This document shows positions 37,752 to 53,375 of a DNA stretch of 64,000 nt, one piece after another. The notes beneath the pieces were generated by a model that saw only the letters and a program-made list of their open reading frames with translations, was not told the DNA's origin and searched no databases. Location: contig NZ_JAAATY010000041.1 of NCBI RefSeq assembly GCF_013280595.1, positions 1-64,000 on the forward strand, in the 5' to 3' direction. Position numbers and translations under genes: made by a program. The DNA comes from Kibdelosporangium persicum. Lineage in GTDB: Bacteria; Actinomycetota; Actinomycetes; Mycobacteriales; Pseudonocardiaceae. Position 1 is the first letter of the stretch, and every line of letters starts with the position of its first letter.

Positions 37752-37764
37752 GCACAGTCCTCGT

Positions 37765-38469: not shown

Positions 38470-38728
38470 CTGAACGGGTGAACAGCGGTGGAGTGTGTGA
38501 CATGCAAACGATGTGTGGGAATTCGTCCTCACGATTCGTGCGCCGCATGGTCGCTTTTGGCCGGTGAACGGTAGATCGAGTTCATCCGGAACGATTGTCG
38601 GACGGCGTTCGTGTGACGAATCCGTGCCGCACGGCAGTGTGTCGTGTATCTGTCAGCTTTCCGGCAGTTGCCTTCCCGGTGTGCCTGGGGGAATCGTGGC
38701 AGACGTCTGGCACGCGGGCAGGAGGGTG

Positions 38729-41503
38729 ATGAACGACCCGGCGGTTTTCCTGAGTTACACCTGGACCGACGAGGCGGCAGCCGACCTCGTCGAGCAGGCT
38801 CTGCGCGCCAGAGGACTGACTGTGTTGCGCGCGAAGGACATCCGCCTGTTCGACGGGATCACCGAGAAGCTCCGGCGCGAGCTCGGCTCGGCCGCCGTGC
38901 TGCTCGCCTTCTACTCCCGGCGGTATTCGATCCGGTACGCCTGCCAGTGGGAGCTCACGAAGGCTTTGCTGGCCGCGCGGCGGATCGGTGACCCGGACGA
39001 TCGTGTCCTGGTGATCAATCCGGAGCCGGACGATCTGCACATCGCACCGGTCGAACTCGCCGAGGCCGGCTGCCTGCCTTGGCGCGGCGAACCCGACATC
39101 GATCGGATGGCCGATGCGGTGGCGGACAGGGTGAGGCGAGCGGACACTCCGTTCGGCGAGGTGACCGGCGACGAGCCACATCGTGGCGTGCCACGGAGGT
39201 TCGTGGGGCGGTACCCGGAGATGTGGGCGATCCACAGCAGACTGCTCGGTGGCCGGCCACCGCGGTCCCACTCGGTGGTGGTGATCGAGGCTCCGGCCGG
39301 AATGGGCAAGACGACGCTCGCGGAACAGTACGCGTCCGTCTTCCGGGACGCCTACCCTGGCGGTGTGGTGTGGACGAGCCTCGCCGAAGCGGATGGAGTG
39401 CCGGCACGATTCGCCGCCGCGGTCAACGAGCTGGCCCGTGAGCGTTTCGGTGTGGACCTGTCGGATATGAACGCACGGCAGGCCAAGGCGACAGTCGCGG
39501 GCAGGATCGTCGACGACACGTTGTGGGTCGTCGATGACGTCCCGGACGGACTCGACCGGGACACGCTCGAACAGCTCGTCATTCCGTCGCCAAAGGTGCA
39601 TACCTTGATGGCTATGCGGACCGTGCCGTCGCAGTGGCCGTGCTCGCAGGTACGGATAACCGGGTTTTCCGTGCGGGAGGCCGAGGAACTGTTCCGGGCG
39701 AACTGGACCGTGCTCAGCCGTGACGAACGCCGGGCGATCGGCCGCCTTGTCACCCGCAGCCAGGGGCATCCGCTCACGATCTTGCCGATCGTGGACCGGC
39801 TTCGTGACGCTCAAGGCACGGGCGCCGTGGAGCGGATGGCCGACGAGCCGGTGCTGAAGCTGGAAGACGGGCTGACCGGCCTCGTGCGTGCCCGCAGCGC
39901 GCACGCCCGTGTGGTGCTGGGTTTCCTGGCCGTGCTGGGCCGGGCGCCGATCAGCGGTGACCTGGTGGCCAGGGGGATTTCGGAAGTACTGGGCGGGCGA
40001 ACCCCGATTCTGGTCGCCGAGGCGCTGGACGAACTCGACCGGCACCGCCTCATCCAGCGGGCGGCCGGAAACCGGCGACAGGCGTGGCGGCTACACGCAC
40101 TCGTGGCCGACGCCGTGACCGACGATCTGGATCCCACACTCCTGAGCTCGCTGGCGAGGCACGCGGCGGGAACTCTGCTCGGAAGCCTCGCGAACGCCTC
40201 GATGGATCTCTGCGCGCACGCGTTGCGGGTGGCGAAGAACGCGGCGGTTCCGTCGGCCGACAGGCTGGCGCTGATTCGCGGGGTAGTGATGGCGCACGAG
40301 GCACGCGGTGACATCGCCGCCGCCCGGGACGCCGGGCATCTCGTGATCAGAGTGGCGGCGGGGGACTGGCAGATCAGTGACGTCGCGACCGCGGCACGGC
40401 TGGCGGTCGTCGTCGGCGATGCGCTTGACGCCCTGGGGCATACGGACAAGCTGATCGACCGGGCTCAATGTCGGCGAGACGTCCGGACCGAGTTCAAAGC
40501 ACGCCAGACCGCGGCCACCGCGTATGACATGCTGGGTGACTACGTCCATGCCGACGCACTGTTCCATCAGCACGACCTCCTCCGCGAGCACGGGGCCGTT
40601 CCGGTCTGGCTGTCCGAAGTGGAGCGTCAACAGGCCGAACTGGCCCGGCTGAAGGCGCTGATCCTGCGGGGCGACTACGAGGCCGCGAGGAGAATCGCCG
40701 ACGGCGTCCTTCCCGCGCTCCGGCTCGCGCACCCGCATGGCGCACACAAGGGACCGTGGCCGTTCGCGACCGTGGAGCTGGCCCGGCTCCAGCTGTTGTC
40801 CGGCGAGCTCGCGCACGCCTGCGGCACGGCGAGGAAAGTGCTCGATGTGTTCGGCGCAGCCGGTCTGGTTCGGCATCGGCTGGCCCGTGAGGCCGTCGTG
40901 ATCCTCACGGAGGCTGAGCTGACCATGGCGTTGACCGAGATGCGCGTCAGGCCGGAGCAGTGGTCGCACGCGACGAAACGACTCCAGGAGGCACTCGACG
41001 AATCGACGGAGTGGTACGGCCCGGATGACCCGCTCACGCTGGAGTTGATGGTCTTGCGTGGCCGGACGTTGAGCAGGGACGAAGAGCATCGGAAAGCGGT
41101 CGCGGTTCTGGCGGACGCGCACCGGCGGGCGTCCGCGGCGCTGGGCGAGGATCACCCGCTTTCCCTGCGGGCCCGGCAATGGACCGGCCTGGTGACGATG
41201 GGCAGTCAGCGGTGGGAGGCGGCCGCGGACCTCTTCGAACGCCTGTTGCCACGCCAGGACGCCGTTCTGGGACGGTGTCACCCCGAGAGCCAGTTCACCC
41301 GGTTTCACCTGGGGGCCTGCCTGCTCAGGCGGAACGACCTGAAAAAGGCGAGGCTCCTGCTCGACGAAGCGGTGCCGGTCCTGCACGCCCACCAGGGCCC
41401 GCTGCGGCAGTGGACGGTGATCGTGACGGGCGGCGACGCCTGCACCCGTGTGCCGAATCCGTTGCGGAGATTTGTCAACTTCCTGGACAAGAGCGTGGGC
41501 TGA
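38729..41503 (+). CDS. TIR-NB-ARC-TPR STAND protein
   Basis: 924 aa. Residues 5-110 are a TIR domain (AVFLSYTWTDEAAADLVEQA; FYSRRYSIRYACQWEL) with a likely catalytic Glu75 in the CQWEL motif known from NAD-cleaving TIRs of this type. The NB-ARC follows, with P-loop APAGMGKTT (188-196), VVDDV Walker B and GHPLTILP. Helical repeats of TPR type run from about 560 to the end. This is a full NLR-like layout: sensor repeats, switch ATPase and TIR effector in one chain. Start ATG 38729 has GGAGGG immediately upstream. Its 3' end overlaps the convergent next gene by 29 nt. Confidence 0.85.
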   Translation: MNDPAVFLSYTWTDEAAADLVEQALRARGLTVLRAKDIRLFDGITEKLRRELGSAAVLLAFYSRRYSIRYACQWELTKALLAARRIGDPDDRVLVINPEPDDLHIAPVELAEAGCLPWRGEPDIDRMADAVADRVRRADTPFGEVTGDEPHRGVPRRFVGRYPEMWAIHSRLLGGRPPRSHSVVVIEAPAGMGKTTLAEQYASVFRDAYPGGVVWTSLAEADGVPARFAAAVNELARERFGVDLSDMNARQAKATVAGRIVDDTLWVVDDVPDGLDRDTLEQLVIPSPKVHTLMAMRTVPSQWPCSQVRITGFSVREAEELFRANWTVLSRDERRAIGRLVTRSQGHPLTILPIVDRLRDAQGTGAVERMADEPVLKLEDGLTGLVRARSAHARVVLGFLAVLGRAPISGDLVARGISEVLGGRTPILVAEALDELDRHRLIQRAAGNRRQAWRLHALVADAVTDDLDPTLLSSLARHAAGTLLGSLANASMDLCAHALRVAKNAAVPSADRLALIRGVVMAHEARGDIAAARDAGHLVIRVAAGDWQISDVATAARLAVVVGDALDALGHTDKLIDRAQCRRDVRTEFKARQTAATAYDMLGDYVHADALFHQHDLLREHGAVPVWLSEVERQQAELARLKALILRGDYEAARRIADGVLPALRLAHPHGAHKGPWPFATVELARLQLLSGELAHACGTARKVLDVFGAAGLVRHRLAREAVVILTEAELTMALTEMRVRPEQWSHATKRLQEALDESTEWYGPDDPLTLELMVLRGRTLSRDEEHRKAVAVLADAHRRASAALGEDHPLSLRARQWTGLVTMGSQRWEAAADLFERLLPRQDAVLGRCHPESQFTRFHLGACLLRRNDLKKARLLLDEAVPVLHAHQGPLRQWTVIVTGGDACTRVPNPLRRFVNFLDKSVG

Positions 41504-42485
41504 CGTGGTCCGGGGCGTCGCAACGAGGCCGCCAGCCGATCCCGTACGAGGTCGAGGGAACCAGGTCGCGGAACGTCGCCTGCACCTCACCGGCGCTGTC
41601 GGCGTGCAGCGTCTTCCGGTGTGGCACCGGGTCACTCGCTTCGAGGGGCAGCTCGCCGTCGATCAGCCAGACCCGCTCGGGAACCCGGTCGCGGCCGAAC
41701 CTGATCCGCAGGCGGAACTCGTCGCAGGCGAACCGGGGAGTGCACGCGTAGAACGGCAGCAGCGACGGGACACGGACGCGGAAGAAGAACTCGTGATGAT
41801 CTCCGATGGCCAGTGGCTTCGGTGGTTTCAGGACGATCTCGACCCGGTTGGAGGACAGCAACCGCGGCGGCGTGGCCATGTCGCCACCGCCCAGCACCGC
41901 GATGCCGAGGTCGGAAAGGTCGAGCGGGACCGGCGGGTTCTCGACCGGCGCGATGGTGAGCCAGTGCCGGATCTCGGTCAGGCCGTCGGCGTGGCTGACG
42001 ATCCTCCGCGTTTCGAACACCTCGATCTCCGGTTGGTCGAGGATGAGGTCCACGCGCAACAGTTCGGTGTGCCACGGGTTGCCGTCCACGGGCTCCACGG
42101 CCTTGCCGGCAGGCGGCGACTGGGTCAGGGTCATCTCGGCGATCCGGTAGATGACCCGGTCGGCCCGGCGCTGCATCGTGCGGACCTCGCGGTCGACGAC
42201 CTTTCCGAGATGTTCGAGCCGGGCCAGGTAGGGCAGATCGCCGGAGCCGCCGAAGCCGAACGCCGTCCGGGCGATCGTGGCGATGGCCTCGGGCAACCGT
42301 GAGATCGTGGCCGCCAGCCAGTCCGTGATCTTCTGGCGCACGATTCCGGGTGAATCGCCGTCGGTCACACCGCTCACCTGCCTGACGGCCGGGCCCGCGC
42401 GCGCGACAAGATTCGGATCCTCGACTCCCAAACCGGTGCGCAGCACTTTCAAGTCGCCGATGAGATCGTCGATCTTGGCCGGCAT
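41475..42485 (-). CDS. protein of unknown family in the conflict island
   Basis: 336 aa, predicted soluble. The first 110 residues are helical (MPAKIDDLIGDLKVLRTGLG) with a short Gly-rich insert. The C-terminal 200 residues are beta-rich with many aromatic residues (HHEFFFRVRVPSLLPFYACT). No catalytic motif is clear. ATG 42485 follows GAAGGTGG. It converges on, and overlaps, the TIR-NB-ARC gene end. It is divergent from the micropeptide and the XRE-NB-ARC gene. I cannot assign a function. Confidence 0.6.
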   Translation of the reverse strand: MPAKIDDLIGDLKVLRTGLGVEDPNLVARAGPAVRQVSGVTDGDSPGIVRQKITDWLAATISRLPEAIATIARTAFGFGGSGDLPYLARLEHLGKVVDREVRTMQRRADRVIYRIAEMTLTQSPPAGKAVEPVDGNPWHTELLRVDLILDQPEIEVFETRRIVSHADGLTEIRHWLTIAPVENPPVPLDLSDLGIAVLGGGDMATPPRLLSSNRVEIVLKPPKPLAIGDHHEFFFRVRVPSLLPFYACTPRFACDEFRLRIRFGRDRVPERVWLIDGELPLEASDPVPHRKTLHADSAGEVQATFRDLVPSTSYGIGWRPRCDAPDHVSPRSCPGS

Positions 42486-42558
42486 GGCGCCACCTTCGTG
42501 TCCCGTCATCGATCAGCGAGTCTACCCATCAACTCGGTGCTCCCGGCAGGACCGGCCG

Positions 42559-42639
42559 GGGGTTTCCGCTGGTTTCCACCCAGGAGGAAACCCCGCAGGA
42601 TATCCGGGTCCGACCTGTTTCCGCGGAGCGTGAAACAGG
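42559..42639. other. two hairpins with repeated GTTTCC in the divergent intergenic region
   Basis: GGGGTTTCC (42559-42567) pairs with GGAAACCCC (42586-42594). CCTGTTTC (42614-42621) pairs with GAAACAGG (42632-42639). The word GTTTCC occurs three times within this 80-bp stretch. It lies upstream of both the micropeptide ORF (plus strand) and the unknown-family gene (minus strand), so it could be an operator or a structured leader. Confidence 0.45.
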
Positions 42640-42765
42640 CAACCACTGTCCACTCCAGGAATGCGGATCGACGATGAGTTCGCCGAAATCATTCGGCAGG
42701 GCACATCAGCCGATAACGAGGCCGGATCGGGTTTCGTGAACGATTCGCGAGAGGGGTGGAGTTTC

Positions 42766-42819
42766 ATGCACACGCACATCATCGTGGTACTGGGCCAGCT
42801 GGTCGCGCTGTTCGGCTAA
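42766..42819 (+). CDS. 17-residue hydrophobic micropeptide ORF
   Basis: The peptide is MHTHIIVVLGQLVALFG, with a GGGGTGGAG-type ribosome site 5-13 nt upstream of the ATG. A strong hairpin follows ten bases after its TAA, and the XRE-NB-ARC-TPR regulator starts 81 nt further on. It could be a signal peptide for that regulator, a leader peptide for attenuation, or a small toxic peptide. The coding call rests only on the ribosome site, the compact layout and the hydrophobic sequence. Confidence 0.45.
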   Translation: MHTHIIVVLGQLVALFG

Positions 42820-42828
42820 CCGGTTCAT

Positions 42829-42865
42829 GGTCCGGCCGGTCGCCGAGGGGGCGGCCGGCCGGGCC
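42829..42865 (+). terminator. terminator or attenuator before the XRE-NB-ARC gene
   Basis: GGTCCGGCCGGTCGCC (42829-42844) pairs over 16 positions, two of them G-U, with GGCGGCCGGCCGGGCC (42850-42865). The loop is GAGGG and TTT follows. It separates the micropeptide ORF from the regulator gene (start 42901), so read-through would decide expression of the regulator if they share a promoter. Confidence 0.75.
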
Positions 42866-42900
42866 TTTCCTCGGCACGGTCAGGAAGGGAAGATCACCTC

Positions 42901-45090
42901 ATGTCGGAGTTCGGGTCGGAGCTGAAACGCCTTCGCGAGGCCGCGGGACTGTCACTGGCGGCGCTGGCGTCGGCCATCCCGACGTCCAAGGGTTATCTCA
43001 GCAAGATCGAGAACGGCAAGGCCAACGTCAGCCGTGTCATCGCCGATGCGTGCGACAAGGCGTTGCAGGCGAAAGGCCAGTTGGCCGCTCTCGCGGCCAA
43101 ACCGGCTGTTCCCGACGGCGGGTCAAGCCGTGGCTCGATCGGGCTCCCGGTCGGTACGCGGCATTTTGTCGGCCGGGTGGCCGAATTGGACAGATTGTCG
43201 TTCATGCTGTCACGTCAGGACGCCGTCGGGGTATGTGTCGTGCACGGAATGGCTGGTGTCGGCAAGACGACTGTCGCTATCGCCGCCGCCCGAGCCGCGG
43301 CGGCGGATTTCCCTGACGGCTGCCTGTTCTTCGATTTCCGCGGCCACACGCCGGGCGCGCCGCTGCTGACGCCCGCGGACAGCCTGCGCTGGGTACTCGG
43401 CTTGCTGGAGGTGCCGGGCGAAAAGATTCCGACGGACGTCAACGGCATGGCCAACCTTTATCAGTCGCTGCTGCACGGACGGCGGATCCTGCTGGTCTTC
43501 GACAACGTCCGCACCGCCCAGCAGGTCAGGCAGCTGCTCCCGGCCGAGCCGGGCTGTCGCGTGATCATCACCAGCCGCGGGCGGCTTCCCGCGCTGGACG
43601 ACGCGGCGCGCATCCCGCTCGACGTGCTGTCCACTGAGGACTCAGTTGATCTTTTCCGCTCTGTGGCAGGGCACTCGGTGCCCATCGACGACGACCAGGT
43701 GCCCGTCATCGTCAAGCACTGCGGGATGCTGCCGTTGGCGATCCGGATCATAGCCGCGAGATTCGTCGCGGGCGGGTGGACCACAACGGGGCTCGCCGGC
43801 CGGCTCGCCGACGAGAACACCAGGCTGGGTTCTCTTGACGACGGTGAACGCAGCGTGGCGAGCGCGTTCTGGGTGTCCTATGACATGTTGCCGCTTGATC
43901 AGCGCTGGTTCTTCGGTTTGCTGGCACTGCTTCCGACCGCGTCGGCCGAGACGTCCGCCGTGCACGCGATGGCCGGCCTGCCGCCGGAGCAGGCGGACCT
44001 GCTGCTGGATCGGTTGCACGACGCCAATCTGCTCACGCGGGATGAGCGCGGGTTCGTCGAACTGCACGACCTGATGCGCACGTTCGCGGCCAGGTACGCC
44101 CTGCCTGAGATCAGCGCGGAGGAGCAAGCCGCGGCAGCGGGGCGGCTGGTGGACCACGCTCTGGCCAAGGTGTACGCGGCGGACGAGCTCCTTGAACCGT
44201 ACCGTTTCCGGCCCGGTGTGGACCTCCCAGCGGCACGTGAGATGCCTTTCGGGTCCGTCGGCGCGGCCCTGAGCTGGCTGCGCCGGCAGTGGCCCGCGCT
44301 CGCCCAGCTGACCGAGCTGGCGTCGAAGTACGGCTGGCATCGCCGATGCTGGCAGCTGGCCTACATCCTGCGCTCGTTCTTCTTCCGTGAACGGCTCCTG
44401 GAGCCGTGGATCAGCACACACAAGCGCGCCCTCGCGTCGGCCGAGCGGAACGGCGACACCGATGGCGTCGGAATGATCTTGAACAACCTGGGCATGGTCT
44501 ACCTTGAACTGGGTGACGTCAGCGGGGCGGTCGAGTGCCATGACCGTGCGGAGCTGTGCTGCAGGCAAGCTGGTGACTCGCGAGGCGCCACTGACGCGGT
44601 GTCCAGCCGCGCATGGGTGTCCCTGTCCGTGGGGGACTATGCCGCGGCGGAGCGTGACCTGACCAGCACACTGGCGACGTACCGAGAGGCGGGGCGGACC
44701 CGCAACGTCGTGATAGCACTACGTGGTCTCGCTTTTGTGCTCACCGCTACGGGCCGGTTCGACGAGGCGCTCGGCCATGCGCATGAGGCGCGTGCGCTGG
44801 CGCAACTGCCGCGCGAGGTGCTGGTGACGATCAACTGCATCGCGTGGATCCACTACCGGGCCGGCCGGCTGGACCAAGCGGAACGCCAGTACCAGGCGGC
44901 ACTGAATCTCGCCGAACTCGTCGACAGTGACTACGAACTGGCGCGCGCCTTCCTCGGAATGGGAAACGTCGCCGCCCGCCGGGGCGAAGACGACACCGCC
45001 AAGACCCTGTGGGCCCACGCCGACGATCTCGGAGTGATGGTCAATCCGATCGTGCTGGGAGAGGCTCAAGCTCGTCTCGAACTCACGTGA
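42901..45090 (+). CDS. XRE-NB-ARC-TPR regulator
   Basis: 729 aa. Residues 1-65 are an XRE-type HTH (LKRLREAAGLSLAALASAIP, KGYLSKIENGKANVS). The NB-ARC P-loop GMAGVGKTT lies at 116-124, with VFDNVRTAQQVRQLLP and GMLPLAIRI motifs. A TPR domain runs from about 500 to 729 (NNLGMVYLELGDVSGAVECH). HTH plus TPR resembles the peptide-sensing RRNPP regulators, with a switch ATPase added. AGGAAGG precedes the ATG. It is preceded by a micropeptide ORF and terminator, and its 3' end is 33 nt from the convergent SEFIR gene. Confidence 0.88.
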   Translation: MSEFGSELKRLREAAGLSLAALASAIPTSKGYLSKIENGKANVSRVIADACDKALQAKGQLAALAAKPAVPDGGSSRGSIGLPVGTRHFVGRVAELDRLSFMLSRQDAVGVCVVHGMAGVGKTTVAIAAARAAAADFPDGCLFFDFRGHTPGAPLLTPADSLRWVLGLLEVPGEKIPTDVNGMANLYQSLLHGRRILLVFDNVRTAQQVRQLLPAEPGCRVIITSRGRLPALDDAARIPLDVLSTEDSVDLFRSVAGHSVPIDDDQVPVIVKHCGMLPLAIRIIAARFVAGGWTTTGLAGRLADENTRLGSLDDGERSVASAFWVSYDMLPLDQRWFFGLLALLPTASAETSAVHAMAGLPPEQADLLLDRLHDANLLTRDERGFVELHDLMRTFAARYALPEISAEEQAAAAGRLVDHALAKVYAADELLEPYRFRPGVDLPAAREMPFGSVGAALSWLRRQWPALAQLTELASKYGWHRRCWQLAYILRSFFFRERLLEPWISTHKRALASAERNGDTDGVGMILNNLGMVYLELGDVSGAVECHDRAELCCRQAGDSRGATDAVSSRAWVSLSVGDYAAAERDLTSTLATYREAGRTRNVVIALRGLAFVLTATGRFDEALGHAHEARALAQLPREVLVTINCIAWIHYRAGRLDQAERQYQAALNLAELVDSDYELARAFLGMGNVAARRGEDDTAKTLWAHADDLGVMVNPIVLGEAQARLELT

Positions 45091-45123: not shown

Positions 45124-46086
45124 TCAGTACAGACTTGGATCTCCCCACGCGAGTTCGGGTAACGCCACCGCGCCCTTCGAATCTGCCAGCAGAGGAGAAG
45201 CCGCGGCACCCGGACGGGACATTTCCAACCGCAGCCGTTGTGCGCCAGTGACGTCCACTTTGATCGTGGCGGACTTGCCCAGCGCCACCTTGCCTTCGTG
45301 CCGCGGGTCGCCGTCGACACAGACCCGGAAATGCCCCACCTGGAAGGTCTCGGCCGCGTCGTCGGGTACTCCGACCACCGAGGTCATCAAGCAGTAGGCG
45401 CCGCCGAGATCGATCTCCACAAAAGCGTGCGAGTCCGAGGTGGCCGGCGACGGCCGCAGAACGATGCTGTTCTCGTACCGCACACCGTCGATCTGCGCGC
45501 TGTCCGCTCGGATGTGCGGACTGGCAACGGTCCATCGCATTCCGTTGACGAACAACGTGCGCCGGTTGTTCTGGCCGCCCAACCACTCTCCACGCCGAGG
45601 CATGGGATGGCGGCCCACTCCCGTGATCGCGGCCACGAGGTCCTGTACTCCCTCGTCCGAGATCTCGTGGATCTTGAACCGCGTCGTGGAGTAGCCGGCG
45701 AGGAACACCGGCAGGTCTTCGACCGTCCTTCCGGGCAGCAGGACCGGCAGGATTCGTTCGGTCTCCCTGCGGATGTCCTTGGTGATGTTGTTGCGCATGA
45801 TCATCGCCTCGAACTGCGCGCCGCGGCCCTCGTCCGGTGGCGCGGTCCCCTCCGCCCTCCGCCGGAACTCCGGTGAGCCGACGACCACGATGTAGTCCGC
45901 TTCGGTCAGCAGGTTCATCGCCCAGATCGACCAGTCGATGCGCTTGTTGTCGGCCCATTGGTCGAACTGCACGTCCAGTCCGATCCGGGCGCGCAGAAAC
46001 GTGGCGAGACGGCGTACCTGGGCTTCGTGGTCAGGTGACTCGTGAGCGTAGCTGACGAACACCAGTGGCGCGGTCCGGTCGGGCAT
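45124..46086 (-). CDS. SEFIR/TIR-like protein fused to an NPCBM-like domain
   Basis: 320 aa. Residues 8-155 are a SEFIR domain (LVFVSYAHESPDHEAQVRRL; FDQWADNKRIDWSIW; EGRGAQFEAMIM with a possible catalytic Glu). From about 175 to 305 comes a beta-sandwich with the NPCBM pattern (HAFVEIDLGGAYCLMTSVVG; FRVCVDGDPRHEGK). This domain normally binds carbohydrate outside the cell, yet no signal peptide is present. The sandwich may sense a cell-wall or phage glycan, or self-associate. ATG 46086 follows AGGGGGA. It is divergent from the TIR-HerA operon. Confidence 0.8.
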   Translation of the reverse strand: MPDRTAPLVFVSYAHESPDHEAQVRRLATFLRARIGLDVQFDQWADNKRIDWSIWAMNLLTEADYIVVVGSPEFRRRAEGTAPPDEGRGAQFEAMIMRNNITKDIRRETERILPVLLPGRTVEDLPVFLAGYSTTRFKIHEISDEGVQDLVAAITGVGRHPMPRRGEWLGGQNNRRTLFVNGMRWTVASPHIRADSAQIDGVRYENSIVLRPSPATSDSHAFVEIDLGGAYCLMTSVVGVPDDAAETFQVGHFRVCVDGDPRHEGKVALGKSATIKVDVTGAQRLRLEMSRPGAAASPLLADSKGAVALPELAWGDPSLY

Positions 46087-46304
46087 CAATCCCCCTGATA
46101 CGTAAGGAAAGCCGGTGTGTCGCGGTGCGTAGTATTGTCGGTGATCACGCGATGGGCGTAACGGTTGTCGTCCGGATGTCATGTTTTTGACGTGTGTCCG
46201 CCACGGGCGGGAAGTGTCCACCTTTTGACATGTCCCATGTCTATTTCGGAGCCGCCTTCCCGACTTAGGATCTCCCGGCCGGGGAGACATGGTTCGAAGG
46301 AGCG

Positions 46305-46898
46305 ATGGCACGCGTGTACGAGTACGACGTGTTCATCAGCTACCAACGGGCTGGCAACACAGTTCCTCCCTGGGTGCGTAACCACTTCTACCCGCGCCTG
46401 ACCGAGCTGCTGGACGACCAGCTCGACCATGACGTGCGAATCTTCTTCGACGAGAACGTCACAGGCGGTGCGAAGTGGCCGGTCGAGCTGCAGAACGCGT
46501 TGCGGCGGACGCGCGTCCTCGTTCCGGTCTGTTCGCCGAAGTACTTCCTCAGCGAGTGGTGCATGGCGGAGTGGCACTCCATGGCCCGGCGCGAGGAACT
46601 GGTCAGCCGGACGGCGGCCACGCGCAGACACAGCCTGATCTACCCGGTGATCTTCTGCGACTCCAGGAACTTCCCCGACTACGCCCACGAGCGCCAGATG
46701 CGTGACTTCAGGAGCTGGGCCTTCCCCTACGCCCACTTCCAGGAAAGCCAGGCCTATCTGGACTTCCACAGGGAGATGATGCAGTTCGCCGAGGAACTGA
46801 CCGAGCTCATCGAAGCGGCGCCGCAGTGGCGGCCGGACTGGCCGGTCACCACGCCGGGTGCCGAGCGCCCCAGGCCATCCCACCTGCCGAGGTTCTAG
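46305..46898 (+). CDS. TIR domain protein, first gene of the TIR-HerA operon
   Basis: 197 aa. A TIR domain fills residues 5-140: YDVFISYQRAGNTVPPWVRN, VRIFFDENVTGGAKWPVELQ and SPKYFLSEWCMAEWHSM. S83, W85, C86 and Glu89 match the S-x-W-C-x-x-E active-site motif of NAD-cleaving TIR domains, so the enzyme is probably active as an NADase. The C-terminus is a short helical tail. AAGGAG lies just before the ATG. It is 4 nt ahead of the KGGVGR ATPase gene. Confidence 0.87.
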   Translation: MARVYEYDVFISYQRAGNTVPPWVRNHFYPRLTELLDDQLDHDVRIFFDENVTGGAKWPVELQNALRRTRVLVPVCSPKYFLSEWCMAEWHSMARREELVSRTAATRRHSLIYPVIFCDSRNFPDYAHERQMRDFRSWAFPYAHFQESQAYLDFHREMMQFAEELTELIEAAPQWRPDWPVTTPGAERPRPSHLPRF

Positions 46899-46902
46899 CG
46901 CC

Positions 46903-48480
46903 ATGCCGGGAACAGTGGTCACTTTCTACTCCTACAAGGGTGGTGTCGGCCGCAGTTTCACCCTGGCCAACATCGCCGTCCTGCTCGCCCGCTGGGGCCG
47001 CCGGGTGCTGTGCCTGGACTGGGACCTGGAGGCACCGGGGCTGCACGACTACTTCCAGCCGATGATCAGTACTCCACCCGCCGGCGGGGTGATCGATCTG
47101 ATCAGTGACTTCCTCGAAGGCCGGAGTCCGCCGCTGGATCACACCGTCCGGCTGTCCGGTGCGGGCGTTCTCGACTTCCTCGCCGCGGGCCGGCAGGACG
47201 CGGACTACGTCGGCCGGGTCCAGGGCATCGACTGGGATCACCTGTACGAACTGGGATTCGGCGACTACCTGGAGAGCTGCCGCGAGCAGTGGACTGCCGA
47301 CTACGACTTCGTGCTGCTCGACAGCCGCACCGGGGTGTCGGACGTGGGCAGCATCTGCACCGCCCACCTGCCTGACCGCCTTGTCGTGTTGTTCACCGCC
47401 AACATGCAGAGCCTGCGCGGCGCTGTCGAAATCGCTGAACGCGCCGGAGTGGCCAGGGATCCGATGCCGTACGACCGGGCGAAGCTCACCATCATGCCGC
47501 TGCTGTCGAGGTTCGACACCCGTGAGGAGTACGACCGCTCGGAGAAGTGGCGGCAGACCGCTCTCAGCGAGACCCGAGGGCTGTTCGACAACTGGCTCAA
47601 CCAGAGGATTCCACCCGAGCTGATCGCGCGGCACCTGACGTTGCCTTACGTGTCGTACTGGAGCTTCGGCGAGCAGCTCCCCGTTCTTTTCGAGTCCAAT
47701 CCGAGCGCGGACCAGATCGGTTTCGCCCTGGAGACGGTGGCCGCACTCATCGCGCACGACTTCGACCGGACGGATCTGCTTGCGGAGAACCGAGACGCCT
47801 ACGTCGCGGCGGCCCGTGCAACCAAACGGCAGTTCGTCCACGACCTCAGGGTGAGTACGCCGAGGTCCACGTTGAAGCTCGCGAACGAGCTCATCGCCGA
47901 ACTGGGTGCGCTGGGTGTCCGGGCCGAGCGGTCGCTGTCGGGTGACCGTTCGCTGCTCACGAAGCTGGAGGACGACGCCCGGCACTTGTGCCTCGTCATC
48001 GACGGCAAGGTGAGCCGGTGGCAGACCGCGGAGGTCGATCTGTTCCTGCACCGGACTCTTGGCCAGGAACGGCGGATCATCCCGGTGCTGACGGCCGACG
48101 CGGATCCCAACGCGCTGCCGGGCCACGTGGGCAACCTGCGGTACGTGAAGTTCAGTCGTTCGGACGGTCCCGCCGAAGTGGCCCGTGGCCTGGCCAAACA
48201 GATCAACGGTTCGGCTCCGCGCGGCGGAGACCTCCTGGACACCCTGCGGCGGGTCGCGGGCGCCTCGTTGCCGCCGCCGTTGTGGGAGATCGTCGACGAG
48301 ATCGTGCGTGCCTTGCTCGACGCGATCACAGCGCACGACGACGCGAAAGTGAGCGAGCTGGGCGACGAACTGGCCTTGGAGATCAGGCCTCGCGTCGCAC
48401 GCCGGCAGGACATGAAGGCCCCGCCGGAGACCCGGGAGGTGATCGAGTGGGTCGTCCGGCGGCTTGAATCGGTGGCATGA
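46903..48480 (+). CDS. KGGVGR-type ParA-like ATPase with C-terminal TIR-like domain
   Basis: 525 aa. The P-loop is the deviant form KGGVGRS (12-18), with FDWDLEAPGLHDYF-like strand 2 (CLDWDLEAPGLHDY). It is thus a MinD/ParA-fold NTPase of the KGGVGR variant. After a middle region, residues 315-430 look like a TIR domain (LCLVIDGKVSRWQTAEVDLF). S371, W373 and Glu377 have the same spacing as in the TIR protein encoded upstream. The last 90 residues are helical. It probably uses ATP to control assembly or activation of the TIR partners (inference). The next gene follows after 24 nt. Confidence 0.8.
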   Translation: MPGTVVTFYSYKGGVGRSFTLANIAVLLARWGRRVLCLDWDLEAPGLHDYFQPMISTPPAGGVIDLISDFLEGRSPPLDHTVRLSGAGVLDFLAAGRQDADYVGRVQGIDWDHLYELGFGDYLESCREQWTADYDFVLLDSRTGVSDVGSICTAHLPDRLVVLFTANMQSLRGAVEIAERAGVARDPMPYDRAKLTIMPLLSRFDTREEYDRSEKWRQTALSETRGLFDNWLNQRIPPELIARHLTLPYVSYWSFGEQLPVLFESNPSADQIGFALETVAALIAHDFDRTDLLAENRDAYVAAARATKRQFVHDLRVSTPRSTLKLANELIAELGALGVRAERSLSGDRSLLTKLEDDARHLCLVIDGKVSRWQTAEVDLFLHRTLGQERRIIPVLTADADPNALPGHVGNLRYVKFSRSDGPAEVARGLAKQINGSAPRGGDLLDTLRRVAGASLPPPLWEIVDEIVRALLDAITAHDDAKVSELGDELALEIRPRVARRQDMKAPPETREVIEWVVRRLESVA

Positions 48481-48504
48481 GTTCCACGGTGGGAGGGATT
48501 TCGG

Positions 48505-49137
48505 ATGTCCGTTGAACTGGGGCACAAGCAGATCGCGGCGATGTTCACGTTGATGAAGCTCGCGCGTGAGGTGTCCAACCCGGAGCTCGAGGAGGTGGTG
48601 GGTTTCCGGCTCACCGGCGAGGACCGCCGGAAGCTCAACAAACAAGGGCTGGTGAGCAGCCGTGAGGAACGAAGGACGCTGTATCACGAGCTGACCGATG
48701 ACGGCTGGGCGTGGTGCGCCAAGGAGTTCAGCGCCAAAGAACCGCCGGGCCCAAGGCCGCGCAGTGTCCTCGGTGTCGCGTTGTACGTTGTCCTCAACGG
48801 ACTGAACGACTACATGCTGCGCGAGAACCTGCGTCCGGCTGACGTTTTCGCGTCCACAGGCGAGCACGGGGAAGAGGACCTTGAGCAGAAGATCCGGCTC
48901 GCTTACCGAAAGCTGGCCGCCTCTCCGCAGGCCTGGGTCGGTCTGGCCGACCTGCGTCCGCTGCTCGGCGATGTGCCGACGGACGAAGTCGACGCCGCGC
49001 TGAAGGAGATGAGCCGTAGTGGCCAGGCGCACCTCGTGCCGGAGCCCAACAGGAAGACCCTTGACGCGGCCGATCACGCGGCCGCGGTTCGGATCGGCGG
49101 CGAGGACAACCACCTGATCTCCATCGAGGCGTCATGA
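48505..49137 (+). CDS. winged-helix-like protein of the TIR-HerA operon
   Basis: 210 aa. Two wHTH-like regions can be traced. One is N-terminal (VSNPELEEVVGFRLTGEDRR, then LVSSREERRTLYHELTDDGW). The other is C-terminal (AWVGLADLRPLLGDVPTDEV, ending RIGGEDNHLISIEAS). It could bind DNA and recruit the HerA motor, or act as the regulator. No named family fits. GGAGGG precedes ATG 48505 and the stop overlaps the HerA start by ATGA. Confidence 0.65.
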   Translation: MSVELGHKQIAAMFTLMKLAREVSNPELEEVVGFRLTGEDRRKLNKQGLVSSREERRTLYHELTDDGWAWCAKEFSAKEPPGPRPRSVLGVALYVVLNGLNDYMLRENLRPADVFASTGEHGEEDLEQKIRLAYRKLAASPQAWVGLADLRPLLGDVPTDEVDAALKEMSRSGQAHLVPEPNRKTLDAADHAAAVRIGGEDNHLISIEAS

Positions 49138-52100
49138 TCGACCAGCTCGCCGCGCTGGCGACTGTGCGTTTCGACTGGGCGGACACACCGGATCACGTGT
49201 GGCGTGACTCTCCGTACCATGTGGACGGTATGCACGCCGACGTGACCGTGGCGGTCGACGTGGGCATCCGTGATGCCATGGAGAGTGACGGGCCGAGTCC
49301 GATCGGGCTTGTGCTGCAGGGCCAGAAAGGCGTCGGCAAGACACACTTGCTCGGTCTTGTCCGGCGGCACGTGCACCTCGCCGGGGGATACTTCTTCCTC
49401 GACGACCTCACCGCGGGCGACGCGTTCTGGGAGAACACCGCGGAGGCGCTCCGTCGTGGCCTGTCCAGAGTAGACGCTTCGGGCGAGTCCCAGCTGACGA
49501 GTTTCCTGCGTCGTGTGTGTGAACGTGGTGCGGTCGACCCCAAGGCGGCCGAGGCGGTCCTGAGCGGATACAACCTGACGAAGTCCGATGTGGACGCCTT
49601 TGTCAACGGCGTGCGGCTGCTCGATCTCCAGCTGGCGAGGGAATGTGGCGACACAGCACGAGCCCTGGTGCTCTATGCGAGCGAGGACACGACGGCGAAC
49701 TACATCGGGGAGGCTTACCTCGGTGGGCTGGACGAGTCGAGGGCCGGTGAACGGGTCAAGTGGGGCATCCGGCCGCGGCCGACAACCGCGCTCGCCCAGG
49801 TCCGCGACATCACCCGGTTACTGGCGTTGACCGGTCCCATCGTCATCGCTGTCGACCAGCTCGACACGCTGATAGCGCGTTCTGCCAGGAAGACGAAGGA
49901 CATCGGGGACAGCGCGGACGAGGACATGCTCGTCGCGCAGATCGCCGACGGGTTGATGGGTTTGCGTGAGGTGACGCGGAGGACCGTGACCATGCTCGCC
50001 TGTCTGCCCGGCACATGGGAGCGCATCAAAGCCACGGCGACCGATTCCGTCCCGGACCGGTTCCGTGAGTCGCTGACGCTGGGCCGGGTCACCGACGCGG
50101 CCCTCGGCCGCGCCCTGATCGAGAAGCGGCTTGGCACTGTCTACGAGGCCATGGGGTTCGTACCCCCGTATCCGACCTGGCCGGTCGCCCCCTCGGCTTT
50201 CGAAGGAGAGTGGGAGGAGTTCACACCCCGCGAGCTGTTGAAGCGCATCAGCGCGCACATCGACAACTGCCTGCGCACCGGGCAGGCTCACGAGCTGACG
50301 AGCTTCGGTGACCGTGCGCCACAACCGGCGGCCGCCCCGCCGCGTCCGGCCACCACACCGGATCGGTTCGCCGAGCTGGACAGGTGGTTCGAGGAGCTGC
50401 GCGCGACCGCAGACGTCTCATCCGCCCTTGACCAGGGAGCCGAGGACAAGGTGATGCCGGAGCTGTTGTCCGCGGCTCTGCGTGCGTGGATCACCGAGGT
50501 CGGCGACGACAACATGGAATGGATGTGCGGGGCCCACGAGGAGAGCAACAACGACCTGCACGCCTGGCTCACCCACACCATCGACGAGGCAGCCGATCTC
50601 GAGGAGCACTGGGCCTTCCGTGCGATCGCCGCTCCCGATCCCCGGGCGGCGCTGAGTCGGCTCCGGAAGGCGTTGTCCGCGGCTGGGACTCGCAAAGGTG
50701 CTGACAACCGGCATCTCATCCTCATCCGTCAGCCGAGATGGTCGCCGGGTGTCAAGACCCAGGAGGCGCTGAGGAATTTCACAGCCGCGGGCGGGAAGTC
50801 GCTGAAGGTGTCGGATCCCGACCTGCGAACGTTCTGGGCACTGGACAAGATGTTCGGCCGGGGTGGTACCGAGTTGCACGAGTGGCTAGTGGACCGCAGG
50901 CCCGCCAGCAAGTCGGCGCTGTTGTCGGCCGTGTTGCCCACACCTTCGACCGGGCACCGTGAGAACGGGACACACCCGCCGCCGGTGGCCGACGCTCCGG
51001 CCGCGGGCACCGTTGCCGGTGCGATCACACTCGGTCGCACGGCCGGTAGCGGACAGCACGTTCGCATTGACCTGGCGGCACTTCGGCAGCACACCGCCGT
51101 GTTCGCCGGATCAGGTTCGGGCAAGACGGTTCTGCTTCGGCGGATCGTCGAGGAGTGTGCGCTTCAGGGCGTCTCGTCGATCGTGCTGGACCCGAACAAC
51201 GACCTGGCGAGACTGGGAGATCCGTGGCCTCAGCCGCCGGACGCGTGGGGACCGGGTGACGCCGAGCTCGCGCGGCGCTATCTGGACGGGACGGACGTCG
51301 TGGTGTGGACACCGGGCCGGTCGACCGGCAGGCCGTTGACTTTCCAGCCGTTGCCCGACTTCGCCAGCGTCGTCGACGATGACGACGAGTTCAACGCGGC
51401 CGTGGAGGTGGCCATCGCGACCCTCGCACCGCAACTGCGGCTCACCGGGAGCACGGTCAAGACGAAGATCGGGATGGCGGTGCTGCGGCAGGCCGTCGTG
51501 CACCATGCCCGGACTGGTTCACGCAGTCTGCCCGGGCTGATCGACGTCCTGGCCGATCTGCCCGGGGGAGTCAGCACGCTCAACGACGCCAGGCGGATCG
51601 CCGCGGATCTGGCGGAAGCCCTCAAGGCGGCGATGGTCAACGATCCACTGTTCGCCGGGGAAGGCGAACCTGTGGATCCCGGCATCCTGCTCACGCCACG
51701 ACCGGGCCGCGACGCCAGGGTGTCGGTGATCAGCTTTGTGGGCCTGCCGTCGGAAGAGCAGCGGCAGAACTTCGTGAACCAGTTGCAGATGGAACTTTTC
51801 GCCTGGATCAAACGCAATCCGGCGGGGGACCGCCCGTTGGGCGGGCTGTTCGTGATGGACGAGGCCCAGACCCTGGCCGCGTCCGGCACGATGACAGCAA
51901 GCACGCGCAGCACCATCGTGCTCGCCTCGCAGGCACGCAAGTACGGTCTCGGCCTGCTGTTCGCCACGCAGGCCCCGAAAGGCCTGCACAACCAGGTCGC
52001 CGGCAACGCGATGACCCAGTTCTTCGGCCGTCTCAACAGTCCGGCGCAGATCGCCGCGGCGAACGAGATGGCCCGCGCCAAGGGCAGTCCGGTTGCCGAC

Positions 52101-52244
52101 ATCTCCCGCCTGGAACGCGCGCAGTTCTACGTCTCCAGCGAGTCTTTCGGCTTCCGGCAAGTCACGACACCGCTCTGCCTTACCCACCACCCCGCTTCGC
52201 CACTGCGCGTCGAGGAGGTGATCGAGCGCGCCCGGAAAACCTGA
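49134..52244 (+). CDS. AAA-HerA double ATPase
   Basis: 1036 aa. The N-terminal AAA module has Walker A GQKGVGKT (63-70) and Walker B IVIAVDQLD near 240. A helical middle region with unknown fold follows. The C-terminal HerA/FtsK-like motor has Walker A AGSGSGKT near 660, LFVMDEAQTLA Walker B near 907, and a Thr/Gln sensor segment (LLFATQAPKG). HerA-type ATPases form hexamers that pump DNA. When paired with SIR2 (Nezha) or other nucleases they act in anti-phage defence. Here the partner effector is TIR. The extra N-terminal AAA is unusual for known HerA defence proteins. It is translationally coupled to the gene before it. Confidence 0.83.
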   Translation: MIDQLAALATVRFDWADTPDHVWRDSPYHVDGMHADVTVAVDVGIRDAMESDGPSPIGLVLQGQKGVGKTHLLGLVRRHVHLAGGYFFLDDLTAGDAFWENTAEALRRGLSRVDASGESQLTSFLRRVCERGAVDPKAAEAVLSGYNLTKSDVDAFVNGVRLLDLQLARECGDTARALVLYASEDTTANYIGEAYLGGLDESRAGERVKWGIRPRPTTALAQVRDITRLLALTGPIVIAVDQLDTLIARSARKTKDIGDSADEDMLVAQIADGLMGLREVTRRTVTMLACLPGTWERIKATATDSVPDRFRESLTLGRVTDAALGRALIEKRLGTVYEAMGFVPPYPTWPVAPSAFEGEWEEFTPRELLKRISAHIDNCLRTGQAHELTSFGDRAPQPAAAPPRPATTPDRFAELDRWFEELRATADVSSALDQGAEDKVMPELLSAALRAWITEVGDDNMEWMCGAHEESNNDLHAWLTHTIDEAADLEEHWAFRAIAAPDPRAALSRLRKALSAAGTRKGADNRHLILIRQPRWSPGVKTQEALRNFTAAGGKSLKVSDPDLRTFWALDKMFGRGGTELHEWLVDRRPASKSALLSAVLPTPSTGHRENGTHPPPVADAPAAGTVAGAITLGRTAGSGQHVRIDLAALRQHTAVFAGSGSGKTVLLRRIVEECALQGVSSIVLDPNNDLARLGDPWPQPPDAWGPGDAELARRYLDGTDVVVWTPGRSTGRPLTFQPLPDFASVVDDDDEFNAAVEVAIATLAPQLRLTGSTVKTKIGMAVLRQAVVHHARTGSRSLPGLIDVLADLPGGVSTLNDARRIAADLAEALKAAMVNDPLFAGEGEPVDPGILLTPRPGRDARVSVISFVGLPSEEQRQNFVNQLQMELFAWIKRNPAGDRPLGGLFVMDEAQTLAASGTMTASTRSTIVLASQARKYGLGLLFATQAPKGLHNQVAGNAMTQFFGRLNSPAQIAAANEMARAKGSPVADISRLERAQFYVSSESFGFRQVTTPLCLTHHPASPLRVEEVIERARKT

Positions 52245-52352
52245 CGTTCCGGTACGCCTTGGCGTCGTCATCGGAGCGACGGCGCCACCACCGAGGGCAG
52301 ACCGTACGAACTCATCGACCGCTATCTGGAACGAGCGATCGCTGAGGCACAG

Positions 52353-53375
52353 GTGCGCACTGTGCCGGAACTGAGCCGCTTCCTTTCGTTGGACCAGCCG
52401 CTGGTGGACCGGGCGGTCCGAGTACTGGCCACGATCGGGCACGTCACGTTCCCCGGAGGCGCCATCGAGCTGACTGAACTCGGCTGGCGGTCCGTTCGGG
52501 ACGGTGTCTGTTATCTCACCACCGTGCAGGACCGTCGCAAGATGTACTTCGACGCCTACCGTTCCCGCCCGTTGAGCCGCAGGTACTACGACCCAGGCGT
52601 GGTCACGTTGTTGCCACTGGAGGACGTGAACGCGGCGGCTGGAGATCGCGGGGCCTCGTTCCGGATGCTGCACAGCACGTACGGTTTTCGGAAGGAGGCC
52701 TTGGCGGAGCTCGCCGGGAACCCGGATCGGGTTCACTACAACCTCCCGGCTCGCATCGAGTATCCGGAGTCGCTCGGTGAGGAACTCGTGTACCTGCCGA
52801 TGTACGTGGTGCGCGCGATGGACGCCGGCGGCCGCCTGACTTACCTGGCATACACCCAAGCCGCTGACAGCGTTGATCCGGACCTCACCGAGTTGCTGCG
52901 CGACACACCGGAAATCGTGGCGCCGCTGGATGCCGAGTTCCGCGCGACGGACCCCGATCGCCAGGCGAACCGGATCGAACGATGGCTCGACAGGCACAAC
53001 ATGACACACTGCCGGGCCGTCCGGACCGCACACGGAACGTGGCGAGTTGTTCTTCCCGAAGCCGCGTTCGTGCCGGCTGGCACAGTCGGGCTGAACAAGG
53101 TGGGTTCCTACGTTGTGCTGGATCAGGATCTTCTGTACGTGTCGTGCGATGTGCGCAGCGTCCGGGAGCGAGCGCTGCTGGAGCGAGTTGACGCCTATGT
53201 AGCGGCTCGCAAGACCACCGCGGCGCTGGACGTCCGTGCGCACATAGCGCGGGTAGCCGCCCAGCTCGGCCTCAGTTCGGTTGGCCCGCGACAGCTCCAG
53301 CGAATGGCGGCCGCGGCCGGCATGCCGGGCCTGGCCGGTGAACTCGCGACGATCGCCGATGAGGAGAACCCATGA
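52353..53375 (+). CDS. winged-helix-like protein of the TIR-HerA operon, unknown family
   Basis: 340 aa from GTG 52353. An N-terminal wHTH-like segment (TVPELSRFLSLDQPLVDRAV, IGHVTFPGGAIELTELGWRS) is followed by a soluble domain (RRKMYFDAYRSRPLSRRYYD) and a C-terminal helical part. The frame is the same as that of the HerA gene, whose stop lies 108 nt upstream. The residues just before the GTG (RPYELIDRYLERAIAEAQ) also look like coding sequence, so the true start may be earlier or a start codon may have been lost. No family is assigned. Confidence 0.6.
   Translation: MRTVPELSRFLSLDQPLVDRAVRVLATIGHVTFPGGAIELTELGWRSVRDGVCYLTTVQDRRKMYFDAYRSRPLSRRYYDPGVVTLLPLEDVNAAAGDRGASFRMLHSTYGFRKEALAELAGNPDRVHYNLPARIEYPESLGEELVYLPMYVVRAMDAGGRLTYLAYTQAADSVDPDLTELLRDTPEIVAPLDAEFRATDPDRQANRIERWLDRHNMTHCRAVRTAHGTWRVVLPEAAFVPAGTVGLNKVGSYVVLDQDLLYVSCDVRSVRERALLERVDAYVAARKTTAALDVRAHIARVAAQLGLSSVGPRQLQRMAAAAGMPGLAGELATIADEENP

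What the first reader, a model, noticed from the sequence alone, without database searches (positions are those of the whole stretch)
46305..53375. Candidate new conflict operon: TIR, KGGVGR-TIR, winged-helix, AAA-HerA, winged-helix
Five plus-strand genes are tightly packed (4-nt gap, 24-nt gap, ATGA overlap, 108-nt gap). They combine an active-looking TIR, a ParA-like ATPase of the KGGVGR type that ends in a second TIR-like domain, two small wHTH-like proteins and a protein with both an AAA module and a HerA motor. HerA with SIR2 (Nezha) is an established anti-phage system that depletes NAD. I know of no described system with this exact set, so it may be an undescribed NAD-depleting defence system.
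Basis: partly seen in the sequence, partly recalled or inferred. Interest (0 to 1): 0.85.

Follow-up and report, generated by a model that had tools for sequence, protein, structure and literature searches.

The report
HerA motor operon with TIR partners
An actinomycete carries a conserved gene set that joins a DNA-pumping motor and its DNA-binding partner to two TIR-type proteins likely to destroy NAD, and relatives of the same motor pair sit beside quite different weapons instead, which suggests a virus-defence sensor with exchangeable effectors that has not yet been tested in the laboratory.

Summary
The operon is real, but its borders differ from the finding. Four plus-strand genes form the unit: TIR (46305-46898), KGGVGR-type ATPase with a TIR-like part and CATASP tail (46903-48480), tandem winged-helix WH1 (48505-49137) and an AAA+/HerA protein (49134-52244). 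The fifth gene (52353-53375) is a bystander, probably a 5'-truncated remnant of another gene set.

WH1 and HerA are a near-invariant pair (129 of 129 non-redundant loci hold both). What lies beside them varies: TIR+KGGVGR (56 loci), DUF559 nuclease (32), trypsin-STAND-WD40 (12), PADLOC candidate PDC-M02 (7), AbiU downstream (4). All 27 full-length KGGVGR-TIR genes found in 397 genomes of the order lie 626-741 nt from a HerA gene. I read it as a two-gene DNA-capture core with exchangeable effectors; here probably a TIR NADase. It resembles the 'HerA/FtsK capture' systems with Orc/CDC6 ATPases (Kaur 2024), described with active nucleases; my searches met no description of this TIR/KGGVGR version. 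Defence and NAD loss are inferred, not tested. New variant of a known kind.

The parts
46305..46898 (+). TIR-domain protein, 197 aa, FxsC-like; presumed NADase effector
   Evidence: TIR_2 7.8e-13; FxsC_Nterm 69.8 bits, below cut-off 130; E89 in S-E-W-C-M-A-E invariant in 14 of 14 homologues
46903..48480 (+). KGGVGR-variant ParA/MinD-like ATPase, 525 aa, with TIR-like C-terminal region and CATASP tail; presumed switch or adaptor
   Evidence: NF047398 149.6 bits; CATASP 29.8 bits; KGGVGRS and E377 invariant in 14 of 14; 27 of 27 full-length homologues lie beside HerA
48505..49137 (+). WH1, tandem winged-helix protein, 210 aa; constant partner of HerA
   Evidence: found in 129 of 129 loci, directly upstream by gene call in 128; AF2 pLDDT 90.7, wHTH units about 7-63 and 126-207; Foldseek wHTH hits
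49134..52244 (+). AAA+ (STAND/ORC-like, Walker B D-Q-x-D) + middle domain (about 413-600) + HerA motor (about 630-1005), 1036 aa
   Evidence: DUF87 3.1e-10, AAA_22 4.1e-8; Foldseek HerA hexamers and DndH-C; Walker residues invariant in 38 of 38
45124..46083 (-). SEFIR-NPCBM protein, 319 aa, divergent; accessory effector/sensor of this subclade
   Evidence: SEFIR 42.4, NPCBM 33.8 bits; PADLOC bSEFIR 7.2e-27 over the SEFIR part; beside the unit in one subclade
46084..46304 (.). intergenic region between the divergent SEFIR and TIR genes, presumably both promoters
   Evidence: read; 23 such regions compared by 8-mers, no single motif established
52353..53375 (+). winged-helix-like protein WH2, 340 aa: NOT part of the unit, probably a 5'-truncated remnant of another gene set
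   Evidence: not adjacent to HerA in 141 of 141 other loci; one locus (L112) has a longer homologue 4.6 kb downstream in another set; 8 homologues elsewhere not beside HerA

Best explanation
A two-gene DNA-capture core (tandem winged-helix WH1 plus an AAA+/HerA double motor) coupled to an exchangeable effector. SHOWN: the constant core pair, the replacement of its neighbours, the attachment of every full-length KGGVGR-TIR found to this core, and the conserved presumed active-site Glu of the TIR. INFERRED: WH1 and the AAA+ part recognise or load on invading DNA; the HerA ring engages it; the KGGVGR protein, whose P-loop lysine is arginine, relays this state to the TIR protein through its own TIR-like part; the TIR then degrades NAD and stops the infected cell. 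SEFIR-NPCBM, read from its own divergent promoter, is a second effector or sensor. In relatives the same core would instead drive a DUF559 nuclease, a trypsin-STAND-WD40 protease, the PDC-M02 pair or AbiU.
For: WH1 with HerA in 129 of 129 non-redundant loci; of 128 junctions measured 85 overlap by 4 nt and 29 by 1 nt. 27 of 27 full-length KGGVGR-TIR genes in 397 genomes lie 626-741 nt from HerA (the search scored the best 3 candidates per genome). A TIR match accompanies KGGVGR in 55 of 55 other loci. Neighbour types, gaps and tree. Nuclease, PDC-M02, AbiU and trypsin/Trypco1 labels of the alternative partners, from representatives; D276, E287, D289 of DUF559 partners, which I presume catalytic, invariant in 14 of 14. 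DUF559-WH1-HerA also on plasmids of Tsukamurella and of Methylobacterium, a different phylum; WH1 identity there by profile comparison, probability 99.9 and 99.0. HerA fold confirmed, top hits HerA hexamers including SIR2-HerA, TdpAB and DndH-C. Window surroundings hold further TIR/SEFIR/NB-ARC genes.
Against: No activity was measured. The TIR+KGGVGR set forms one clade of the HerA tree (57 rows with the SEFIR-only locus), so its linkage rests on one origin kept over time, not on repeated gain. 17 of 129 loci have no partner that I recognised (21 'other', 4 of them with AbiU; a few are cut by contig ends or poorly called). SEFIR and trypsin-STAND genes are divergent, not co-transcribed, so they could be neighbours only. 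The second TIR-like domain scores below cut-off. Relatives were found on no viral contig and on 3 of 72,556 records of the plasmid collection, one of which is 11.85 Mb long, so mobility typical of defence islands is weakly supported. The AAA+ Walker B is D-Q, so its hydrolysis may be impaired.
Confidence: 0.6

Rival explanations
1. Defence system in which the motor core itself restricts DNA (by capture or stalling) and TIR/SEFIR are backup suicide effectors that fire when the core fails.
For: Backup-effector logic is proposed for DndFGH and related systems (PMC10853773, passages); SEFIR sits on its own divergent promoter region. One locus has SEFIR but no TIR+KGGVGR (L045).
Against: No active nuclease motif seen in the HerA protein: the middle domain lacks an obvious D..ExK in the conserved positions. 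Full-length KGGVGR-TIR was found away from the core in 0 of 27 places, which fits a primary role better than a spare one.
Confidence: 0.2
2. DNA maintenance or transfer module: ParA-like ATPase, winged-helix DNA binder and HerA/FtsK motor work in partition or conjugation, and the TIR is a regulator.
For: ParA-like ATPase plus DNA binder plus FtsK-like motor is the usual set-up of segregation (recalled); VirB4/TrwB are among the fold hits.
Against: The ATPase has Arg in place of the P-loop Lys in 14 of 14; no viral contig and 3 of 72,556 plasmid records carry the core; partners in relatives match nuclease families, AbiU and PDC-M02.
Confidence: 0.1
3. Developmental or peptide-linked signalling as in actinobacterial FxSxx-COOH clusters, from which TIR and KGGVGR parts derive, rather than phage defence.
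For: TIR matches FxsC_Nterm (69.8 bits) and the NB-ARC gene upstream matches FxSxx_TPR (94.2 bits), both under cut-off.
Against: Both scores miss NCBIfam's cut-offs (130 and 300), and the NB-ARC gene matches HaaT (272.5 bits, cut-off 1125) and AfsR models better; the shared core with nuclease partners has no place in that pathway. The peptide and radical-SAM genes were not searched for.
Confidence: 0.08

Closest known systems
HerA/FtsK capture systems with Orc/CDC6 AAA+ ATPase (Kaur et al. 2024, PMC10853773, sections 22 and 26 read)
   Same: AAA+ of the AAA_16/AAA_22 group, HerA motor and wHTH proteins in one operon; a domain between AAA+ and HerA; nuclease-family partner in the DUF559 relatives
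   Different: Partner here is TIR plus KGGVGR-TIR-CATASP and SEFIR, not an active REase; the section read mentions TIR as a fusion to related Orc/CDC6 genes apart from the HerA association; its main text does not name DUF559; its supplements were not read
Nezha (SIR2-HerA)
   Same: HerA motor plus a presumed NAD-degrading enzyme
   Different: TIR instead of SIR2; extra AAA+ half, WH1 and KGGVGR protein; HerA similarity is distant (HerA_antiphage 24.9 bits, cut-off 800)
BREX-Related Capture systems (PMC12839542, passages)
   Same: HerA/FtsK with ORC/Cdc6-type AAA+ and wHTH DNA binder
   Different: No PglZ, GNAT or TGT match among the window proteins scanned
MADS mad8 (PADLOC model)
   Same: best PADLOC match of the HerA part, 59.2 bits over residues 633-1001
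   Different: only the motor matches; no methyltransferase match among the window proteins scanned
PADLOC PDC-M28B and bSEFIR
   Same: KGGVGR domain matches PDC-M28B (1.8e-26); the divergent gene matches bSEFIR (7.2e-27)
   Different: single components; no other PDC-M28 component matched
Thoeris
   Same: TIR protein as presumed effector or messenger maker
   Different: only a 17.1-bit hit to ThcB4 (cut-off 220); no ThsA-type match among the proteins scanned

Membership tests
Orc/CDC6-HerA/FtsK capture system | HerA/FtsK motor | tested here: met
   DUF87 over cut-off; Foldseek
Orc/CDC6-HerA/FtsK capture system | AAA+ ATPase of the Orc/CDC6 family | tested here: inconclusive
   AAA_16 in 19 of 19, AAA_22 in 18 of 19, ORC-CDC6-like in 5 of 19 members at E 0.1; no PDB sequence match under E 0.04
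Orc/CDC6-HerA/FtsK capture system | inactive REase inserted after the AAA+ core | tested here: inconclusive
   model of residues 437-557 has helix-strand-strand-strand-helix-strand-helix-strand order, which suits a REase fold by my reading; no sequence support
Orc/CDC6-HerA/FtsK capture system | wHTH protein in the operon | tested here: met
   WH1 model, wHTH hits, 129 of 129 loci
Orc/CDC6-HerA/FtsK capture system | active REase in the operon | tested here: not met
   none among the window's proteins scanned; DUF559 relatives carry a nuclease-family gene
Nezha | SIR2 NADase gene beside HerA | tested here: not met
   no SIR2 hit in the 7-8 window proteins scanned
Thoeris | ThsB TIR with ThsA | tested here: not met
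   no ThsA-type hit among the proteins scanned; best Thoeris hit 17.1 bits against cut-off 220
FxSxx-COOH system | FxsC above curated cut-off | tested here: not met
   69.8 bits against 130
FxSxx-COOH system | FxSxx peptide and radical SAM enzyme | not tested
   not searched
TIR NADase | catalytic Glu in the S-x-W-C-x-x-E helix | tested here: met
   E89 invariant in 14 of 14; that this is the catalytic Glu is recalled from TIR literature
TIR NADase | NAD hydrolysis | not testable with these tools
   needs enzyme assay
anti-phage defence system | protects against phage | not testable with these tools
   needs plaque assays

The most novel reading that the evidence does not exclude
WH1-AAA/HerA is a general DNA-invasion sensor of Actinomycetota onto which chemically different effectors are plugged (NAD hydrolysis by TIR through a KGGVGR pseudo-ATPase relay, DNA cleavage by DUF559, proteolysis by trypsin-STAND-WD40, AbiU, PDC-M02), much as CBASS plugs different effectors onto one signal; the TIR form would be, as far as I know, the first HerA capture system that acts through NAD by a TIR.
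Probability: 0.45. Interest if true: 0.8.

Novelty: new variant of a known kind. Interest (0 to 1): 0.62.

Why it matters
HerA motors turn up in several defence systems, but how a DNA pump triggers killing is unclear. A core pair that stays constant while its partner changes from a TIR to a nuclease or a protease lets the sensing step be studied apart from the killing step, and swapping partners would show directly whether the core sends a general signal. It would also give KGGVGR variant ATPases, matched in 68 of 397 genomes of the order and without a tested function that I know of, a first testable role.

Tried and rejected
Five-gene operon: rejected. WH2 is beside HerA in none of 141 other loci; only L112 has it, 4.6 kb downstream in another gene set. 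An earlier count of mine looked only within 5 kb and so missed L112. HerA and WH2 as one split gene: they share a reading frame with HerA's stop between them, but HerA matches elsewhere end at the same point and the L112 homologue is a separate, longer gene, so the window's WH2 looks 5'-truncated rather than a HerA part.

Calmodulin hits for the WH1 profile: judged chance matches in an acidic stretch; the predicted fold is winged helix. PDB sequence searches with the AAA+ half and the middle domain gave nothing useful. Viral contigs: 18 pattern matches, none a relative. pPIWI-RE as an effector type: seen upstream in one locus only (L003), so not counted. MutS_V pair (L075) likewise single. Common operator in the SEFIR/TIR intergenic region: T-rich repeats are visible in several loci but no motif was established. 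HerA sought across the phylum: 6 of 396 genomes at E 1e-60, all 6 of the window's own order, against 95 of 397 within the order at E 1e-20; yet the capped named list also holds Streptosporangium, Planotetraspora and Kribbella, so the core is not confined to it. One of 141 loci (L167) shows WH1 only by gene clustering, not by tblastn; one of 129 (L068) only by tblastn. An earlier count gave 41 of 80 loci with TIR+KGGVGR and 22 with SEFIR; the right counts are 40, and 21 (a 22nd locus has SEFIR without the TIR pair).
Full report
Observation. Pfam, NCBIfam and PADLOC give: TIR (TIR_2 49.4 bits); KGGVGR variant ATPase (NF047398 149.6 bits, cut-off 90) with a weak TIR_2 match at residues 350-420 and a CATASP domain at 443-522; no family above cut-off for WH1; AAA_22 and the HerA central domain (DUF87, 41 bits) in the 1036-aa protein; nothing in Pfam for WH2; and a divergent SEFIR-NPCBM gene at 46083-45124. 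The window lies in G000, 10.35 Mb in 89 contigs; its nearest HerA relatives in the tree are from Actinosynnema and Actinocrispum, Pseudonocardiaceae.

Conservation. The genome holds a second copy of the HerA protein, 49% identical. Of 397 genomes of the order 95 have a relative at E 1e-20. After removal of copies 129 of 142 loci (window included) remain. WH1 is present in all 129; by gene call it is directly upstream of HerA in 128, the exception L068 shows it by tblastn. Of the 128 junctions 85 are 4-nt overlaps and 29 1-nt overlaps.

Partners. Of the 129 loci 56 carry TIR+KGGVGR (30 of these also SEFIR), one SEFIR alone, 32 a DUF559 protein, 12 a trypsin-STAND-WD40 protein, 7 the PDC-M02 pair, 21 something else (features within 4.5 kb). 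Trypco1 is in 10 of the 12 trypsin loci. The labels come from representatives of each cluster. Four of the 21 have AbiU (AIPR) directly downstream, with gaps of -4 to 27 nt. On the HerA tree the TIR+KGGVGR loci and the SEFIR-only locus make one clade of 57 rows with support 100; the 26 without SEFIR are one clade (99); the 30 with SEFIR need one change but with low support as an exact group; PDC-M02 needs 3 changes, trypsin 2, DUF559 10; all seven groups together need 15 against 78.6 in shuffles (FastTree, local support). So neighbours are clustered by clade and have changed several times. The DUF559 trio also occurs on a Tsukamurella plasmid and on a Methylobacterium plasmid, Pseudomonadota.

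Reverse test. Searching the same 397 genomes with the KGGVGR-TIR alignment gave 68 genomes with a match at E 1e-30. The 27 full-length matches, in 26 genomes, are all 626-741 nt from a HerA gene; the other matches cover the ATPase part or a fragment only, mostly inside reading frames of about 1300 codons or more. The search scored the best 3 candidates of each genome.

WH2. No other HerA locus has it adjacent (0 of 61; 0 of 80 within 5 kb). L112, a near relative, has a 73% identical homologue 4.6 kb downstream of HerA, last of a set SEFIR-kinase, 967 aa, 407 aa. That homologue starts 48 residues before the point where the window's sequence becomes alike; the window has no ATG there and HerA's stop lies 108 nt before the GTG. 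I take WH2 for a truncated remnant brought next to HerA by loss of the DNA between. Eight further homologues in 298 genomes are not beside HerA hits.

Protein detail. TIR: E89 in SEWCMAE is invariant in 14 of 14; that this position is the catalytic Glu is recalled knowledge. KGGVGR: the motif KGGVGRS and E377 (SRWQ..E) are invariant in 14 of 14; compared with the recalled ParA motif KGGxGK[ST], the P-loop lysine is arginine. HerA protein: P-loop residues within G63-T70 and G661-T665, D909-E910 of the motor, and D241-Q242-x-D244 of the AAA+ half are invariant in 38 of 38. AF2 models: WH1 pLDDT 90.7 with two winged-helix units; HerA protein pLDDT 79.8, Foldseek hits HerA hexamers, SIR2-HerA, TdpAB, DndH-C and VirB4/TrwB. 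The middle domain (about 413-600) has an order of elements that suits a REase fold, with no D..ExK evident; this is my reading and no search supports it. DUF559 partners keep D276, E287 and D289 in 14 of 14.

Surroundings. Upstream lie a SEFIR gene (37733-37092), a CRP-type regulator, a TIR-NB-ARC-TPR gene (38729-41503) and a HTH-NB-ARC-TPR gene (42901-45090), so the window is rich in genes of this kind.

Mechanism. I propose that WH1 and the AAA+ half recognise or load on incoming DNA, that the HerA ring engages it, and that the KGGVGR protein passes this on to the TIR, which removes NAD. The first part follows the capture idea of PMC10853773 (sections 22 and 26 read; passages); the second rests on the TIR family. 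Neither was tested.

Literature. 'KGGVGR' is in one paper of the library, on mushroom lectins (listing). No paper holds pPIWI-RE with HerA or PDC-M02; two hold DUF559 with HerA, neither on this subject by title and abstract (listing). Searches joining HerA with TIR and related terms gave lists in which no abstract shown describes TIR+KGGVGR with HerA; I did not read all of those papers. Passages were read in PMC12839542, PMC7159879, PMC8195603 and PMC11559045. PMC7159879 reports MinD/ParA-like effector-position domains, predicted inactive, in its ternary conflict systems and an inactive MinD/ParA-like domain on AP-ATPases of actinobacterial peptide-processing systems. PMC8195603 reports NPCBM domains fused to TIR and other effectors. 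Most subscription papers and preprints are not in the library, and supplements were not read, so earlier listing of single loci cannot be excluded.

Check. Holding the report against the calls changed the WH2 account (L112 added), added profile tests for the plasmid WH1 proteins (plain BLASTP for Methylobacterium gives only 28.1 bits) and exact counts.

Noticed in passing
window 37092-45090: Further TIR-type and NB-ARC genes upstream: SEFIR (37733-37092), CRP-type regulator (38433-37765), TIR-NB-ARC-TPR (38729-41503), HTH-NB-ARC-TPR (42901-45090): an immune-like island.
   Followed up: partly
window 52245-53375 and L112:11375-16952: In the near relative L112 a set SEFIR-kinase (479 aa), 967-aa protein and WH2 homologue (407 aa) follows HerA; the window keeps only a shortened WH2, as if the DNA between had been lost.
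   Followed up: partly
L003:898-12484 (G000 C35): Second WH1-HerA copy of the same genome lies between PprDinG+PprPIWI (pPIWI-RE) and AbiU; the pPIWI-RE link is seen once, AbiU in four loci.
   Followed up: partly
L173:4867-20933: On a Tsukamurella plasmid record the DUF559-WH1-HerA set lies, with a VapB/PIN pair, between ribosomal protein genes (rplN side and rpsQ side).
   Followed up: no
L174:7246-12255: Methylobacterium plasmid carries DUF559-WH1-HerA, a second phylum; this record has one annotated feature in all and none in the stretch.
   Followed up: partly
L082, L136, L143 and others: Trypsin-STAND-WD40 genes divergent from WH1-HerA in 12 of 129 loci, 10 with Trypco1; the named ones are of Micromonosporaceae genera.
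   Followed up: partly
window 46084-46304 and 22 related intergenic regions: T-rich repeats with GTC or GAC recur between divergent SEFIR and TIR genes in the regions printed; possible operator.
   Followed up: partly
window 52353-53375: WH2 has a weak PADLOC MkoB match (18.6 bits); homologues in 8 other genomes of 298.
   Followed up: partly
L046-L055 and L114-L138, downstream of HerA: In 19 of the 26 TIR+KGGVGR loci without SEFIR a d9-type gene on the other strand follows HerA directly, often with d10 and d4 beyond it; not identified.
   Followed up: no
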